Positions 95-4,726 of a stretch of 5,739 nt of DNA are shown in pieces. Every line of letters begins with the position of its first letter. Within the stretch, counting starts at the first letter, position 1. Both the position numbers and the translations under genes were made by a program. Source of the stretch: Clostridia bacterium (GTDB lineage Bacteria > Bacillota > Clostridia > Oscillospirales > CAG-272); contig JAFQPC010000155.1 of the NCBI GenBank assembly GCA_017411935.1, positions 1-5,739 of the forward strand, in the 5' to 3' direction. The notes under the pieces were generated by a model. It saw only the letters and a list, made by a program, of their open reading frames with translations. It was not told where the DNA came from and made no database searches.

Positions 95-123
95 TTGACA
101 AGAGGAAAATATTCTTATATAAT
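95..123 (+). promoter_or_regulatory. Sigma-A promoter of the sodium-pump operon
   Basis: A consensus -35 TTGACA (95-100) and consensus -10 TATAAT (118-123) are separated by 17 bases. Transcription should start near 130, about 180 bases before the first start codon, which leaves room for the structured leader that follows. Confidence 0.85.
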
Positions 124-137
124 ATATAGGTAAGAAA

Positions 138-222
138 TGAGGGAGTAGTCGCGCGCATTTGCGCGTAGCAAGTCAACAACCACGGTCGATACGACTTGGC
201 TTGCTTTAAAGAACCAGACTCA
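138..222 (+). ncRNA. yybP-ykoY-like metal-ion riboswitch aptamer
   Basis: The leader folds into the layout of the yybP-ykoY (Mn2+) aptamer. P1 is TGAG (138-141) with CTCA (219-222). The 5' internal-loop strand is GGAGTAG (142-148), as in the family's GGGGAGUAG. P2 is CGCGC (152-156) with GCGCG (161-165). P3 is AGCAAGTC (167-174) with GGCTTGCT (198-205), eight pairs including one wobble. The inner loop AACAACCAC (175-183) and cap helix GGTCG/CGACT (184-188/192-196) follow, and the 3' strand CCAGA (214-218) resembles the family's GCAAGACC. Family assignment rests on remembered consensus, not a covariance search. Known members mostly precede metal transporters or exporters; here the downstream gene is a Na+ pump, so the ligand could be Mn2+ or another cation, and a Na+-sensing class is an alternative. 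P1 competes with the following terminator, so ligand binding would favour readthrough. Confidence 0.68.
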
Positions 223-254
223 ATATACGTTTGCGCGTATATTGGGCTTTTTTT
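219..254 (+). terminator. Leader intrinsic terminator (riboswitch expression platform)
   Basis: CTCAATATACG (219-229) pairs with CGTATATTGGG (236-246), giving 11 pairs with one wobble and a 6-base loop, followed by C and seven T (248-254). Its first four bases are also the 3' strand of aptamer P1, so the two folds exclude each other at the stem base. It lies 55 bases before the start codon and inside the leader, so it is an attenuator rather than a gene-end terminator. Confidence 0.8.
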
Positions 255-309
255 GTGAAAAAATAAAAAATTAAGATATAGAAAAGACGAACGTAGAAAG
301 GAACTTCTT

Positions 310-1416
310 ATGGAAATCTTGTATGAAAATCTGTTGCTTCTGTTCCAGAACGGCGGTTGGCAGAGAATGGTGATGTGGCTCATCGGCGGGCTTCTCATTT
401 ATCTTGCCATCAAAAAGGATATGGAGCCGACACTTCTTTTGCCGATGGGATTTGGCGCGATCATCGTCAATATCCCCGCCATTTACAACGGAGCACTCTC
501 GACGCTCTTCTCGGCGGGTATTTCGAATGAGCTGTTTCCGCTGATCCTTTTCATCGGTATCGGCGCGATGATCGACTTCGGTCCGATCCTCTCAAACCCC
601 AAGCTGATGATTTTCGGCGCGGCGGCGCAGTTCGGTATCTTCTTTACCTTCTCGCTCGCGTCTCTTTTCTTCGAGCTTCCCGAGGCGGCATCCATCGGTA
701 TCATCGGTGCGGCAGACGGTCCTACGGCGATCGTCGTGGCACAGAAGCTGCTTGGTAACGCGTCGCAGATCACGGGTGCGATCATGGTGGCGGCATATTC
801 GTATATGGCGCTCGTTCCCGTCATTCAGCCCCCGATCATCAAGCTCCTGACCACCAAAAAGGAGAGAATGATCCGTATGCCCTATCAGCCCAAGAACGTG
901 TCGAAGACCACGCGTATTCTGTTCCCGATCATCATCACGATCATTGCGGGACTGATCGCGCCCGAATCAATCGACCTCTTAGGATTTTTGATGTTCGGTA
1001 ACCTCATTCGTGAGTGCGGTGTGCTCAACTCGCTCTCCGAGACGGCACAGAAGGTGCTCGCGAACCTCATTACCATCTTCCTCGGTATCACGGTCGCAAC
1101 GCAGATGACGGCAGACAAGTTCCTGCAGCCTGCGACGCTCCTCATTCTCGGACTCGGACTCTTTGCCTTTATCTTTGATACGGCAGGCGGTATTCTCGTT
1201 GCGAAGCTGATCAACCTTTTCTCCAAGAAGAAGATCAACCCGATGATCGGCGCGGCGGGTATTTCGGCGTTCCCGATGTCGGGACGTGTCGTGCATAAGA
1301 TGGGACTCGCGGAGGACCCGCAGAACTTCCTTTTGATGCACTCGATCGGTGTCAACGTCTCTGGTCAGATCGCGTCTGTCATTGCGGGCGGACTGATCCT
1401 CAGCTTTATGCTTTAA
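310..1416 (+). CDS. Na+-translocating decarboxylase, beta subunit (OadB/GcdB/MmdB family)
   Basis: Integral membrane subunit that couples decarboxylation of carboxybiotin to export of Na+. The 368 residues are mostly hydrophobic helices and carry the family signature blocks in order: GIGAMIDFGP (83-92), GAADGPTAI (133-141), VAAYSYMALVPVIQPP (160-175), MFGNLIRECGV (228-238) and NPMIGAAGISAFPMSGR (310-326). Residues matching those studied in Klebsiella OadB are kept: D136 (D203), N310 (N373), G314 (G377), S319 (S382) and R326 (R389), with tyrosines at 163 and 165 near Y229. It is shorter than OadB (about 430), mainly at the N-terminus. The C-terminal block reads MHSIGVNVSG where I recall MHAMGPNVAG in typical members. 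AAAGGAA at 297-303 precedes the ATG by 6 bases. The substrate (oxaloacetate, methylmalonyl-CoA, glutaconyl-CoA or malonate) cannot be told from the beta subunit, and no carboxyltransferase or biotin carrier gene is nearby. Expression probably depends on the leader riboswitch. Confidence 0.95.
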   Translation: MEILYENLLLLFQNGGWQRMVMWLIGGLLIYLAIKKDMEPTLLLPMGFGAIIVNIPAIYNGALSTLFSAGISNELFPLILFIGIGAMIDFGPILSNPKLMIFGAAAQFGIFFTFSLASLFFELPEAASIGIIGAADGPTAIVVAQKLLGNASQITGAIMVAAYSYMALVPVIQPPIIKLLTTKKERMIRMPYQPKNVSKTTRILFPIIITIIAGLIAPESIDLLGFLMFGNLIRECGVLNSLSETAQKVLANLITIFLGITVATQMTADKFLQPATLLILGLGLFAFIFDTAGGILVAKLINLFSKKKINPMIGAAGISAFPMSGRVVHKMGLAEDPQNFLLMHSIGVNVSGQIASVIAGGLILSFML

Positions 1417-1428
1417 GGAGGGAATACG

Positions 1429-1605
1429 ATGGATATTTTCGGAAAATTCAGTATAGAACGCTTTGTTTCTTCTCTTCAGTATATGTGGCAGGGAATGCTC
1501 TGCATCTTTATCGTGATCGGCGTGATCATTCTCGCAACGGTTGCGATGAACTCGATCTTCGCAAAGCTTGCGGACAAGAAGAAAGAGAAAGAAAGTCAAG
1601 AATAA
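1429..1605 (+). CDS. Small single-helix membrane protein, gamma-subunit-like (OadG family)
   Basis: A 58-residue protein with one transmembrane helix (about residues 22-42, starting MLCIFIVIGVII) and a short charged tail (KKKEKESQE). Small gamma subunits of Na+-pumping decarboxylases have this layout: one N-terminal helix that anchors and assembles the complex, then a soluble tail. The tail here is much shorter than in OadG proteins carrying metal-binding or biotinyl regions, so only the anchor part is present. The ribosome binding site AAGGAGGG (1415-1422) overlaps the beta-subunit stop codon and lies 6 bases before the ATG, which implies tight co-expression with the pump subunit. Sequence identity to OadG is weak at this length, so the assignment rests largely on layout and position. 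Confidence 0.75.
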   Translation: MDIFGKFSIERFVSSLQYMWQGMLCIFIVIGVIILATVAMNSIFAKLADKKKEKESQE

Positions 1606-1735: not shown

Positions 1736-2143
1736 ATGGCAACGAAAGAAACCAATCAAAAACGAAATACTCTGCAAAAGAGAATCGTCCACGACGTCTT
1801 TTGCAGTTTGCACAATCATCCCTCTGCGGGAATGGTGTATGAGGCGGTTCAGGAAAAATTCCCAGGCATCAGCCGCGCGACGGTCTACCGACTGCTCGCC
1901 GAAGCGGCGGAAGAAGGGAAGATCCAACGTCTCAAACTGGTCGATGCCAACGACCGTTACGACATCACGCTGGGCACGCATCATCACGTGGTGTGTCGCT
2001 CCTGCGGCGCTGTTGCTGACGTAAATCTGGAGGTCGATCACGAGCGCCTGACCGACAAGGCGGAAGGACACGAGGGATTTCTCATTGAGGACTGTCACCT
2101 CGAGTTCGTTGGGCTCTGTGAGAGCTGTCGCAATCAAATTTAA
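1736..2143 (+). CDS. perR: PerR-like Fur-family peroxide-sensing repressor
   Basis: A 135-residue Fur-family repressor: an N-terminal winged helix (about 10-75, including ISRATVYRLL at 45-54), then a metal-binding dimerization domain. By alignment to Bacillus PerR the regulatory-site ligands are H28 (H37), D76 (D85), H82 (H91), H84 (H93) and D95 (D104), and the structural zinc site is C87, C90, C128 and C131. The D at 95 matters: PerR proteins have Asp there while Fur proteins have Glu, so this should be an iron-dependent peroxide sensor rather than an iron-uptake regulator. I chose ATG 1736; a GTG at 1724 in the same frame overlaps the ribosome binding site AAGGAG (1719-1724), so it is unlikely. 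The rubrerythrin gene follows after 33 bases without a convincing terminator, so the repressor heads the operon it probably controls. Confidence 0.88.
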   Translation: MATKETNQKRNTLQKRIVHDVFCSLHNHPSAGMVYEAVQEKFPGISRATVYRLLAEAAEEGKIQRLKLVDANDRYDITLGTHHHVVCRSCGAVADVNLEVDHERLTDKAEGHEGFLIEDCHLEFVGLCESCRNQI

Positions 2144-2176
2144 AAATTTTTTTAATCAAAAAGGAGATCAAAGATT

Positions 2177-2722
2177 ATGGCAAAGTTTGTATGTTCTGTA
2201 TGCGGTTACGTTCACGAGGGAGACGCTGCTCCCGAAAGATGCCCCCAGTGCAAGGTTCCGGCAGAGAAGTTCAACAAGATGGAAGAAAATAAGCTCTCTT
2301 GGGCGGCAGAGCACGTCGTCGGTGTAGCACAGGGTGCTCCCGAGGATATTATGATGGATCTGAGAGCGAACTTTATGGGTGAGTGCACCGAGGTTGGTAT
2401 GTACCTTGCAATGGCAAGAGTGGCACACCGTGAGGGTTACCCCGAGATCGGTCTTTACTGGGAAAAGGCAGCTTACGAAGAAGCAGAGCACGCTGCAAAG
2501 TTTGCTGAGCTTCTCGGTGAGGTCGTTACCGACAGCACCAAGAAGAACCTCGAGATGAGAGTTGCCGCTGAGAACGGCGCAACCGAGGGCAAGTTTGACC
2601 TCGCAAAGAGAGCAAAGGCACTCAACCTTGACGCGATCCACGATACCGTTCACGAGATGGCTCGCGACGAAGCTCGTCACGGCAAGGCATTCGAGGGACT
2701 GCTCCAGAGATACTTTGGCTAA
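2177..2722 (+). CDS. Reverse rubrerythrin (peroxide reductase)
   Basis: Cytoplasmic non-haem iron protein that reduces hydrogen peroxide (and, in clostridial homologues, contributes to O2 reduction) with electrons from NADH via rubredoxin. The domain order is reversed from classical rubrerythrin: the rubredoxin-like iron site comes first (C6, C9, C22, C25), then the four-helix ferritin-like diiron domain (about 40-181). Candidate diiron ligands are E69 and E72 in [10 protein letters not shown]102 and H105 in EEAEH, and E160, E165 and H168 in [10 protein letters not shown]. The 181-residue length fits the clostridial reverse rubrerythrins. AAGGAGA at 2161-2167 is 9 bases before the ATG. It is the second gene of the operon after perR, as expected for a PerR target, and the rubredoxin two genes on is the likely electron donor. 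Confidence 0.93.
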
Positions 2723-2765
2723 TTAAAATACATCACATCTGTCAATGACAGAGAAGGAGACGACA

Positions 2766-3275
2766 ATGAACGATAAGATCAAGGCACTGCTGAATGAGCA
2801 GATCAATAAAGAGCTTTATAGCGCGTATCTGTACGTAGATATTGCCAATTATTATGATGAATTGGATCTCGATGGCTACGCAAACTATTATATGGTACAG
2901 GCACAAGAGGAGCGCGACCACGCACTGCTGTTTATGAAATATATGCAGAACAACGGCTGGAAGGTCACGCTGGAAGCAATCGCAAAGCCCGATAAGACAT
3001 ACGGCAACATTCTTGATCCTCTTGAGGTTGCCGCAGAGCACGAGCGCTACGTCACCTCGCTGATCAACACGATCTATCACGAGTGCTACGAGGCAAGAGA
3101 TTATCGTACGATGAAGTTCCTTGACTGGTTCGTTGACGAGCAGATGGAGGAAGAGGACAACGCGGATTCGATGATCAACCGCTACAAGCTCTTTGGAAGC
3201 GATCCCAAGGGTCTGTACGCCCTCGATCAGGAATACGCAGGTCGCGTTTATACCGCACCGAGCCTCGTTCTGTAA
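2766..3275 (+). CDS. Bacterial non-haem ferritin
   Basis: A 169-residue iron-storage ferritin that would oxidise Fe2+ and store it as a mineral core in a 24-subunit cytoplasmic shell. The ferroxidase residues line up one position off E. coli FtnA: E16 (E17), E49 (E50), H52 (H53), E93 (E94), Q126 (Q127) and E129 (E130), within the blocks NKELYSAYLY, QAQEERDHA and DEQMEEEDN. The chosen ATG is 2766 because AAGGAGA (2754-2760) sits just ahead of it; an in-frame ATG at 2745 lies before that site and would add seven residues not expected in the family. The gap from the rubrerythrin gene is 43 bases with no terminator. Storing iron beside peroxide removal limits Fenton chemistry, so its place in this operon makes sense. 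Confidence 0.93.
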   Translation: MNDKIKALLNEQINKELYSAYLYVDIANYYDELDLDGYANYYMVQAQEERDHALLFMKYMQNNGWKVTLEAIAKPDKTYGNILDPLEVAAEHERYVTSLINTIYHECYEARDYRTMKFLDWFVDEQMEEEDNADSMINRYKLFGSDPKGLYALDQEYAGRVYTAPSLVL

Positions 3276-3308
3276 TTGAAAAACTATCAAAAAAAGGAGA
3301 TAAAACCG

Positions 3309-3464
3309 ATGAAATACGTATGCCCCTGCGGCTATGAATACGATCCCGCCGTCGGCGATCCCGATAACGGCGTCGCTCCCGGCACGGCTTGGGAAGACGT
3401 CCCCGCCGATTGGGTCTGCCCCGTTTGCGGACTCGACAAGGATTCGTTTGACGCTGTGGAATAA
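3309..3464 (+). CDS. Rubredoxin with a shortened first metal knuckle
   Basis: A 51-residue rubredoxin, a small one-iron electron carrier, probably feeding electrons to the reverse rubrerythrin two genes upstream. The family body is clear: [16 protein letters not shown] (11-26), [14 protein letters not shown] (28-41) and the two cysteines C37 and C40. The first knuckle, however, reads V-C5-P6-C7-G8-Y: C-x-C instead of the usual C-x-x-C-G-Y. The frame is intact on both sides, so this is a one-codon loss or a natural variant, not a frameshift. All four cysteines remain, but iron geometry or redox potential could differ. ATG 3309 follows AAGGAGA (3294-3300) by 8 bases; an upstream in-frame TTG (3276) lies before this site and is rejected. 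It is the last gene before the terminator. Confidence 0.92.
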
Positions 3465-4135: not shown

Positions 4136-4726
4136 ATGAAAACGTTAATCCCAAGATGTCCATCGTGTAATAACGCACTTGAGCAAAGCGTTCAGGTCTG
4201 TGAATACTGTGATAGTCCCGTCGTTATTACATCCTTTTCAACGCTTGGCGGGATGTCTGCCCCAAAGGTAAACAAGTATGCAAATGCATATAAAGATATG
4301 ATTTCAGAAAATCCGGACAGTGAGATTTTAGCCATCTCTCTTGGTATGTGTTTTATGAGATTGAAGCTTTATGATAAGGCTTACGAAGCTTTTGATAAAG
4401 CGATTTCCGCTTACACCGAAAATCCTGAGGTTTATTTTATGGCGGCAGTTTGCGCTCTTGGGGGCAAGAAGGCGTTTCTTGCCGGCAAAGCAAATGTTGA
4501 CAAGGCAATTTCAATGCTTAAGATAGCGATAGACATAGAGCCTCGTGGAATTTTCTATTACTTTGACGCTTATCTGAGATTCGATTTTTATAAGAGAAAA
4601 GCGTTGAATATAAGACCCGCTTATACTGATAGTCTTATGTTGGCCAATCGGCTTGGCTATTCTCATGCGGACGTTCAAACGCTTTTTGAGCTCCTCGGTG
4701 TTGAAGCTCCCGCAGAGCTTGGATAA
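4136..4726 (+). CDS. Zinc-ribbon protein with TPR-like helical repeats, function unknown
   Basis: A 196-residue soluble protein of unknown function. The N-terminus is a zinc ribbon: C8-P-S-C11 and C22-E-Y-C25. A short linker (about 30-45) leads into paired helices resembling tetratricopeptide repeats; the clearest unit is residues 64-97, with the LG.C...L..YDKAYEAFDKAI pattern, and a second looser unit covers about 98-136. Such repeats normally bind other proteins. No signal peptide, membrane segment or catalytic motif is visible. ATG 4136 follows AGGAG (4123-4127) by 8 bases; an in-frame TTG at 4109 precedes that site and is rejected. It is the first gene of the plus-strand cluster and is divergent from the XRE regulator. 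I infer an adaptor or scaffold role and cannot name a partner. Confidence 0.85.
   Translation: MKTLIPRCPSCNNALEQSVQVCEYCDSPVVITSFSTLGGMSAPKVNKYANAYKDMISENPDSEILAISLGMCFMRLKLYDKAYEAFDKAISAYTENPEVYFMAAVCALGGKKAFLAGKANVDKAISMLKIAIDIEPRGIFYYFDAYLRFDFYKRKALNIRPAYTDSLMLANRLGYSHADVQTLFELLGVEAPAELG

What the first reader, a model, noticed from the sequence alone, without database searches (positions are those of the whole stretch)
130..254. yybP-ykoY-like riboswitch controlling a sodium pump
The leader shows P1, the GGAGTAG loop strand, P2, an 8-pair P3 with inner loop AACAACCAC and a cap helix, and a CCAGA 3' strand, as in Mn2+-sensing yybP-ykoY aptamers (seen directly; family consensus from memory). 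The 3' P1 strand is the start of the terminator stem, giving a plausible ON switch. Family members usually control metal transporters or exporters. Here the target is a Na+-translocating decarboxylase subunit, which suggests either Mn2+/Na+ cross-talk or a variant aptamer with a different ligand, possibly Na+. Short four-pair P1 and TGAG/CTCA in place of the usual AAGG/CCUU-like closure also point to a variant.
Basis: partly seen in the sequence, partly recalled or inferred. Interest (0 to 1): 0.75.

Follow-up and report, generated by a model that had tools for sequence, protein, structure and literature searches.

The report
Manganese riboswitch controlling a sodium pump
In front of genes predicted to make part of a bacterial sodium pump lies an RNA of the manganese-sensing riboswitch family, which would likely switch those genes on when manganese builds up, so pumping sodium may help these bacteria cope with excess metal.

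Summary
Leader 130-254 starts after a perfect sigma-70 promoter, folds as described, and ends in a terminator sharing the 3' P1 strand. It matches no Rfam family, but a covariance model from 13 relatives' oadB leaders, window excluded, finds it at 37.1 bits (E 1.7e-8). The 'variant, perhaps Na+' idea is not supported: an AACA loop (67 of 74), TGAG/CTCA P1 (34 of 74), CCAGAC (10 of 74) and a junction too short for P4 (54 of 54 measured) occur in the other leaders of the same bacterial family, which precede mainly MntP, P-type ATPase and Na+/Ca2+-exchanger genes. The sodium-pump target recurs: 14 of 69 sampled relatives' oadB loci and 29 of 80 nearest loci. In a same-genus relative with 98% identical OadB, an 87% identical leader precedes an exchanger gene, then oadB-oadG; two more have that order. 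Best reading: a Mn2+-induced operon that likely supplies a sodium gradient for cation export. Ligand and physiology are inferred. Against tight coupling: 13 of 22 genomes checked have no exchanger found. Four literature searches aimed at it showed no report of oadB under this riboswitch.

The parts
95..123 (+). sigma-70 promoter TTGACA-17-TATAAT; transcript expected to start near 130
   Evidence: 12 of 12 consensus matches; start site inferred
134..223 (+). yybP-ykoY-type aptamer (three-way junction, no P4)
   Evidence: R1 without the window, 37.1 bits, E 1.7e-8; R2, 60.2 bits, window in training; junction of 5 bases
138..141 (+). P1.1 (switch helix) 5' strand TGAG, pairs with 219-222
142..147 (+). 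L1 5' strand GGAGTA (equivalents of G8, G9, A10 of the crystal structures, by my alignment)
151..166 (+). P2 hairpin
167..205 (+). P3: 8 pairs 167-174/198-205, L3 175-183, cap helix 184-188/192-196, bulged T197
   Evidence: covariation of both P3 helices
175..183 (+). L3 AACAACCAC; A178 aligns with the invariant Mn2+-coordinating adenosine (A41 L. lactis, A48 X. oryzae)
   Evidence: position by alignment, contact inferred
214..222 (+). P1.2/L1 3' strand CCAGA and P1.1 3' strand CTCA
219..246 (+). intrinsic terminator whose 5' arm is the P1.1 3' strand (expression platform), T-run 248-254
310..1416 (+). oadB, predicted beta subunit of a Na+-translocating decarboxylase (368 aa)
   Evidence: PF03977 E 2.3e-150; TIGR01109; seven residues at positions that I recall as the Na+/carboxybiotin site are kept (on the alignment)
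1429..1605 (+). oadG-like predicted gamma subunit (58 aa)
   Evidence: PF04277, 27.7 bits against a cut-off of 27

Best explanation
The leader at 130-254 is a member of the yybP-ykoY riboswitch family with an overlapping terminator; it is predicted to bind Mn2+ and would then let transcription run on into oadB-oadG, which encode the predicted beta and gamma subunits of a Na+ pump. Shown here: family membership by covariance model, the shared strand between P1.1 and the terminator, and the recurrence of both in front of oadB. Inferred: when Mn2+ is low, 219-222 pairs into the terminator and transcription stops; when Mn2+ is high, L1 and L3 dock around it, P1.1 forms and the terminator cannot. 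The likely benefit is that the extra Na+ pump subunits raise the sodium gradient that drives cation export, for which the clearest sign is the riboswitch - Na+/Ca2+-exchanger - oadB - oadG order in relatives of the same genus. The window's version has a closely related leader but no exchanger gene, so it looks like a derived, shortened form of that operon.
For:: R1, trained on 13 other oadB leaders, finds the window at E 1.7e-8; strong covariation (262 cells changed on both sides against 86 in shuffles, 32 sequences). R2 also finds the E. coli mntP riboswitch (E 3.7e-4 in 300 kb; annotated Mn2+ exporter), alx only weakly (E 0.081); of 74 non-oadB aptamers in the same GTDB family, 33 precede one BLAST cluster that Pfam calls P-type ATPase, 31 MntP, 6 Na+/Ca2+ exchanger, 2 ABC-type ATPases (named by eye), 1 a CitMHS/ArsB-type carrier, 1 a TetR regulator (Pfam on 10 of the 74); nearest of the 119 aptamers compared with the window's is L184 (83%, same genus), in front of an exchanger; tree support 0.974; 41 of 44 distinct oadB leaders have a terminator overlapping P1.1, against 7.45 of 44 (range 3-11) in 20 of my own shuffles; riboswitch in 14 of 69 relatives' oadB loci and 29 of 80 nearest loci. 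G218 (OadB 98% identical), G199 and G217 have riboswitch - exchanger - oadB - oadG; G218 has the same nine-base L3. (PMC6754395): an AACA-type L3 binds Mn2+ in X. oryzae.
Against: No binding or expression data exist for this RNA. L3 is one base longer than in most members, and P4 is absent. RF00080 gives no hit to the window, although it finds E. coli mntP at 41.6 and L098 at 33.8 bits, both under its cut-off of 45; it also misses alx at E 1. The exchanger link is partial: 13 of 22 genomes chosen for a riboswitch with oadB have no PF01699 match, the window's own included (67% complete) and 8 others at 91% completeness or more; of the 9 that have one, 4 (G199, G205, G217, G218) were put on the list because of it, so the fairer figure is 5 of 18. 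All 22 have MntP, whose dependence on Na+ I cannot judge. Of the 17 family genomes with riboswitch-oadB found by R1, 15 have their alpha-subunit (PYC_OADA) gene on another contig and 2 are not among the genomes with a match, so pump activity is unproven. 55 of 69 sampled oadB relatives show no such leader. A misassembly at the leader-oadB joint cannot be excluded without reads.
Confidence: 0.6

Rival explanations
1. Same RNA family and ON switch, but the natural ligand is Ca2+, or Ca2+ and Mn2+ alike, and the operon serves calcium export: the partner exchangers are of the Na+/Ca2+ family.
For: Partners in G218, G199, G217 and G093 are PF01699-type exchangers. A review says that the S. pneumoniae mgtA aptamer is a three-way-junction yybP-ykoY RNA that binds Ca2+ more tightly than Mn2+ (PMC9495176, passage; the primary paper is not held). 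The window's aptamer lacks P4 too.
Against: Among the 74 non-oadB aptamers, 67 of them AACA-type, 31 precede MntP and 33 P-type ATPases; AACA-type L3 is that of E. coli mntP and the Mn2+-bound X. oryzae RNA. The same review passage says that Mn2+ activates mgtA transcription more than Ca2+.
Confidence: 0.17
2. Mn2+ riboswitch, but for metabolic reasons: oadB-oadG are made when Mn2+ is plentiful because the biotin-dependent carboxyltransferase partner or upstream enzymes use Mn2+, not because of export.
For: At least one alpha-type (PYC_OADA) gene exists in 163 of 196 family genomes, the window's own included, so a complete pump could form in trans; seven active-site positions are kept. No exchanger was found in 13 of 22 genomes. 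Mn2+ use by such enzymes is recalled, not searched.
Against: No alpha subunit or other decarboxylase gene appears among the 74 other targets examined; the visible co-operon partner is an exchanger.
Confidence: 0.15
3. The aptamer has changed ligand, for example to Na+.
For: Target handles Na+; Na+-I riboswitches are associated with pycB/oxaloacetate decarboxylase genes elsewhere (PMC9337991, passages). A review expects ligand-switched yybP variants with genes that do not fit Mn2+ (PMC7266159, passage).
Against: The Mn2+-sensing adenosine and L1 are kept, and the unusual features also occur before Mn2+-exporter-type genes. No Rfam match to a Na+ family.
Confidence: 0.05
4. The leader-oadB joint is an assembly artefact and the leader belongs to an exchanger gene.
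For: Nearest leaders belong to exchangers; window 95-270 and 297-420 match G218 on either side of an exchanger gene of about 1.2 kb; draft genome of 217 contigs.
Against: Riboswitch directly before oadB is the usual arrangement elsewhere (49 of the 52 distinct riboswitch loci counted, window included; the other 3 have the exchanger between); L104-L106 and L279 show it in close relatives, though with other aptamers.
Confidence: 0.06

Closest known systems
Mn2+-sensing yybP-ykoY riboswitch (Rfam RF00080; L. lactis, E. coli mntP, X. oryzae yebN)
   Same: L1 GGGAGUA / AGA, P1.2, P2, P3 with L3 and the Mn2+-binding adenosine position, terminator sharing P1.1 as in L. lactis
   Different: no P4, nine-base L3, target is a Na+-pump beta/gamma pair; below Rfam detection
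S. pneumoniae mgtA yybP-ykoY aptamer
   Same: three-way junction (review passage). Rfam RF02617 (a Streptococcus sRNA) may be this RNA, which is my guess; it matches three oadB leaders of relatives below its cut-off of 56 (36.1, 31.0 and 28.1 bits)
   Different: controls a Ca2+/Mn2+ ATPase; Ca2+ binds tighter there
Na+-I (DUF1646) riboswitch
   Same: activates gene expression and is sometimes found before oxaloacetate decarboxylase genes (PMC9337991)
   Different: no match here; P1-P2 architecture of its own
OadB of Salmonella (PDB 6iva, 6iww; organism recalled)
   Same: homologous over 60-368, E 1.5e-102; chain positions D203, Y229, N373, G377, S382, R389, N412 identical (residue roles recalled)
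   Different: about 55 residues shorter near the N-terminus; no alpha subunit gene next to it in the window

Membership tests
yybP-ykoY (Mn2+) riboswitch | L1 strands GGGAGUA and AGA between P1.1 and P1.2 | tested here: met
   invariant in the 13 training leaders, which were picked partly for GGGAGTAG
yybP-ykoY (Mn2+) riboswitch | P3 with internal loop L3 holding the invariant adenosine | tested here: met
   AACA in window, L184 and E. coli mntP; X. oryzae ACA48
yybP-ykoY (Mn2+) riboswitch | conserved helices with covariation | tested here: met
yybP-ykoY (Mn2+) riboswitch | four-way junction with P4 | tested here: not met
   5 bases between P3 and P1.2 in the window; 54 of 54 non-oadB and 36 of 43 other oadB leaders have 5-8 bases, 7 of 43 have 14-15, E. 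coli mntP 20. Since MntP leaders of the family lack it and a three-way junction is known in S. pneumoniae, I treat P4 as not defining
yybP-ykoY (Mn2+) riboswitch | score over the Rfam RF00080 gathering cut-off | tested here: not met
   no hit at E 10; E. coli mntP itself scores 41.6 under the cut-off of 45 and alx is missed, so the cut-off is not decisive
yybP-ykoY (Mn2+) riboswitch | Mn2+ binding | not testable with these tools
   needs in-line probing
yybP-ykoY (Mn2+) riboswitch | switch helix P1.1 competing with a terminator | tested here: met
   (by sequence and predicted folds)
Na+-I (DUF1646) riboswitch | match to the family model | tested here: not met
   no match among 4227 Rfam models at E 10; that DUF1646 is among them is recalled
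Na+-translocating decarboxylase beta subunit (PF03977) | family score and active-site residues | tested here: met
Na+-translocating decarboxylase complex | alpha, beta and gamma subunits acting together | tested here: inconclusive
   beta and gamma here; an alpha fragment on another contig of the same genome

The most novel reading that the evidence does not exclude
The riboswitch-controlled OadB-OadG pair, which has no alpha subunit gene beside it, is not a spare pump part but a metal-efflux device: either a dedicated sodium battery for a Na+-driven Mn2+ exporter made from the same operon, or, where no exchanger exists, itself a Na+-coupled Mn2+ exporter evolved from a decarboxylase pump.
Probability: 0.2. 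Interest if true: 0.85.

Novelty: new variant of a known kind. Interest (0 to 1): 0.55.

Why it matters
The RNA is a known kind; the target is the news. A 2020 review (PMC7266159, passage) notes that some genes under yybP RNAs do not fit Mn2+ sensing and may signal changed ligands. Here one such gene, a predicted sodium-pump subunit, recurs behind two aptamer subtypes (GTCA and AACA), stands in one operon with a Na+/Ca2+-exchanger-type gene in relatives, and the aptamer keeps its Mn2+ site. That offers another answer than ligand switching: the sodium gradient may be part of metal export. Gemmiger formicilis ATCC 27749, a named strain, has the riboswitch-oadB arrangement, so it can be tested directly. 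It also shows a blind spot of the Rfam model, which matched 1 of the 12 leaders of this group that I gave it, and that one below its cut-off (window; seven leaders; four).

Tried and rejected
Rfam as the sole test: it fails on the window and on relatives with canonical-looking leaders such as L007, so its silence was not taken as refutation. A Na+-sensing aptamer was rejected as main reading because the odd features also belong to exporter-type leaders. Copying of the leader from a distant mntP was considered and dropped when G218 showed a closely related leader in front of exchanger-oadB. A search for an exchanger elsewhere in the window's genome found none. The window's own MntP has no such leader. 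R1 over 196 genomes missed the window itself because of stricter filters; R2, which has the window in its training set, found it. My terminator finder found nothing in 3 of 44 leaders: L010, L178, L183. Literature: four searches aimed at oadB/decarboxylase under a manganese or yybP riboswitch, two on exchangers, one on a sodium gradient in Mn2+ efflux; of the papers listed I opened passages only of those cited, the others I saw as listings. The two 2015 papers that defined the class, and the S. pneumoniae one, are not held, so a mention there cannot be excluded.

Counts and bias: 52 of 154 distinct oadB loci with a riboswitch (166 loci before removing duplicates) mixes samples, one of which, 19 loci, was chosen because DNA there matched the window; the cleaner figures are 14 of 69 and 29 of 80 (one of the 29, L131, is cut off at the contig end, and L160 scores only 24.8 bits). 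The 69 are the best-scoring relatives, not a random draw; one of them, L052, has almost no upstream sequence. The two samples overlap. For the downstream tally 74 non-oadB hits were fetched, nearly all from the best-scoring ones. The L3 and junction counts used 54 of these 74; one oadB row (L160) gave no L3 there. The terminator finder and its shuffles are home-made and only roughly dinucleotide-preserving.

Full report
What is there. The window is a whole contig (G000:C142) of a draft genome of 217 contigs, 67% complete. Then come oadB (310-1416) and a small oadG-like gene (1429-1605), and after a terminator-like stretch near 1615 (by eye) a PerR-type regulator and rubrerythrin-, ferritin- and rubredoxin-like genes.

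Is it a yybP-ykoY RNA? Rfam finds nothing. But orthologous oadB genes in the same GTDB family carry leaders with GGGAGTAG ... GTCA ... AGACTTTT and a terminator on the last strand. A model of 13 of them (R1), with strong covariation, finds the window at E 1.7e-8. Caveat: the 13 were picked partly for GGGAGTAG, so that stretch is not independent; the helices are. A second model of 32 leaders (R2, window included) finds in 72 sources, up to E 1, only oadB leaders (15, window included) and the E. coli mntP riboswitch; alx is seen only weakly in a smaller search (E 0.081).

Is it a variant with another ligand? Among 99 aligned aptamers L3 begins AACA in 48 of 54 non-oadB leaders, in E. coli mntP and in the window, and GTCA in 39 of the 43 other oadB leaders. 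By string count over all 74 non-oadB aptamers: AACA 67, TGAG/CTCA 34, CCAGAC 10. The junction is too short for P4 in 54 of 54 non-oadB and 36 of 43 other oadB leaders. A nine-base L3 is rarer (2 of 54 and 5 of 43), but G218 has the same one. The 74 stand before 33 P-type ATPases, 31 MntP, 6 Na+/Ca2+ exchangers and 4 others (Pfam on 10 of them). PMC6754395 (abstract and the sections on introduction, metal sites, L3 and L1 read) reports ACA in the X. oryzae L3 against UCA in L. [quoted passage not shown] So the window's aptamer is of the exporter type, and its features argue for Mn2+, not for Na+. Binding itself is untested.

How it would switch. In the fold of the whole leader the terminator forms and P2 and P3 stay; with the terminator cut off, TGAG pairs with CTCA. 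This is the layout of the L. lactis Mn2+ riboswitch, where Mn2+ stabilises P1.1 and prevents the terminator (PMC11087558, passages). One review calls Mn2+ riboswitches OFF switches (PMC11477304, passage), which does not fit the L. lactis work or this layout. Of 44 distinct oadB leaders, 41 have a terminator overlapping P1.1; shuffles of the same stretches give 7.45 on average, range 3-11.

How often is oadB the target? 14 of 69 relatives' oadB loci in the first sample, 29 of 80 nearest loci in the named genome collection, among them Gemmiger formicilis ATCC 27749 (Oscillospiraceae). All 29 lie upstream of the oadB match on the same strand (coordinates). Most sampled orthologues therefore lack it.

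Why this aptamer here? Of 119 aptamers compared, the closest is L184, in front of a Na+/Ca2+ exchanger in the same genus (83%; tree support 0.974 in a tree of 99); the best other oadB leader reaches 65%. A DNA search of 30 same-genus genomes explains it: in G218, whose OadB is 98% identical, the leader (87%) and the oadB start (88%) lie about 1.2 kb apart, with an exchanger gene between. G199 and G217 have the same order; G205 has exchanger, then riboswitch, then oadB; G214 has exchanger and oadB without a detected riboswitch; G093 has riboswitch and exchanger followed by PerR and rubrerythrin, the genes that follow oadG in the window; L139 has oadB then exchanger. In all, 6 of 154 distinct oadB loci have an exchanger next door on the same strand; 2 of the 6 (L105, L139) come from the 80 nearest loci, while 4 were found only in the genus search. 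The simplest account is that the window's lineage lost the exchanger gene while keeping leader and pump genes; a misassembly is less likely but open.

What is it for? OadB keeps the seven positions I recall as the Na+/carboxybiotin site, so pump chemistry is plausible. The alpha subunit is not beside these genes: of the 17 family genomes with riboswitch-oadB found by R1, 15 have a PYC_OADA gene on another contig, and 2 (G117, G186) are not among the genomes with a match, read off. The co-operon suggests that the pump feeds a Na+-driven exporter. Against this, 13 of 22 genomes with a riboswitch and oadB have no PF01699 match; leaving out the four listed for their exchanger, only 5 of 18 have one. 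All 22 have MntP. So either MntP-type export also profits from the Na+ gradient, or OadB-OadG does something by itself.

What is known. Na+-I riboswitches are sometimes found before oxaloacetate decarboxylase genes (PMC9337991, passages). Mn2+ riboswitches are described before Mn2+ exporters and other cation transporters (PMC11477304 and PMC7266159, passages). I found no report of oadB under a Mn2+ riboswitch in the four searches aimed at it, which cover open-licence papers only.

Verdict. Real element; known RNA family, probability of membership about 0.95; Mn2+ as ligand about 0.75; ON switch about 0.85; sodium-gradient role in export about 0.4. These numbers are my judgement.

Noticed in passing
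L008, L012, L017, L019, L028 upstream of oadB: Several oadB orthologues without a yybP-type leader seem by eye to share another leader with a TGACTG-like stretch near the start codon; it may be a different control element.
   Followed up: no
window 1736-3464: PerR-type regulator followed by rubrerythrin-, ferritin- and rubredoxin-like genes, an oxidative-stress cluster; PerR and rubrerythrin also follow the riboswitch operon in G093 and G032.
   Followed up: partly
RF00080 and RF02617 in Rfam 15: The Rfam Mn2+ model scores E. coli mntP under its own cut-off (41.6 against 45) and misses alx at E 1, while the 'Streptococcus sRNA 10' model RF02617 matches three of the oadB leaders below its cut-off, as if it were a yybP-type RNA filed as an sRNA.
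   Followed up: partly
G000:C79:1235-1699 (L245): The window's own genome has an MntP gene without a recognisable riboswitch in front, unlike the 31 MntP genes with one in relatives.
   Followed up: partly
L094, L100, L101: Good aptamer hits upstream of ABC-type ATPases and a TetR regulator, unusual targets for this class; intervening genes were not checked.
   Followed up: no
window 4136-4726: Protein with weak zinc-ribbon and TPR matches, function unknown.
   Followed up: no
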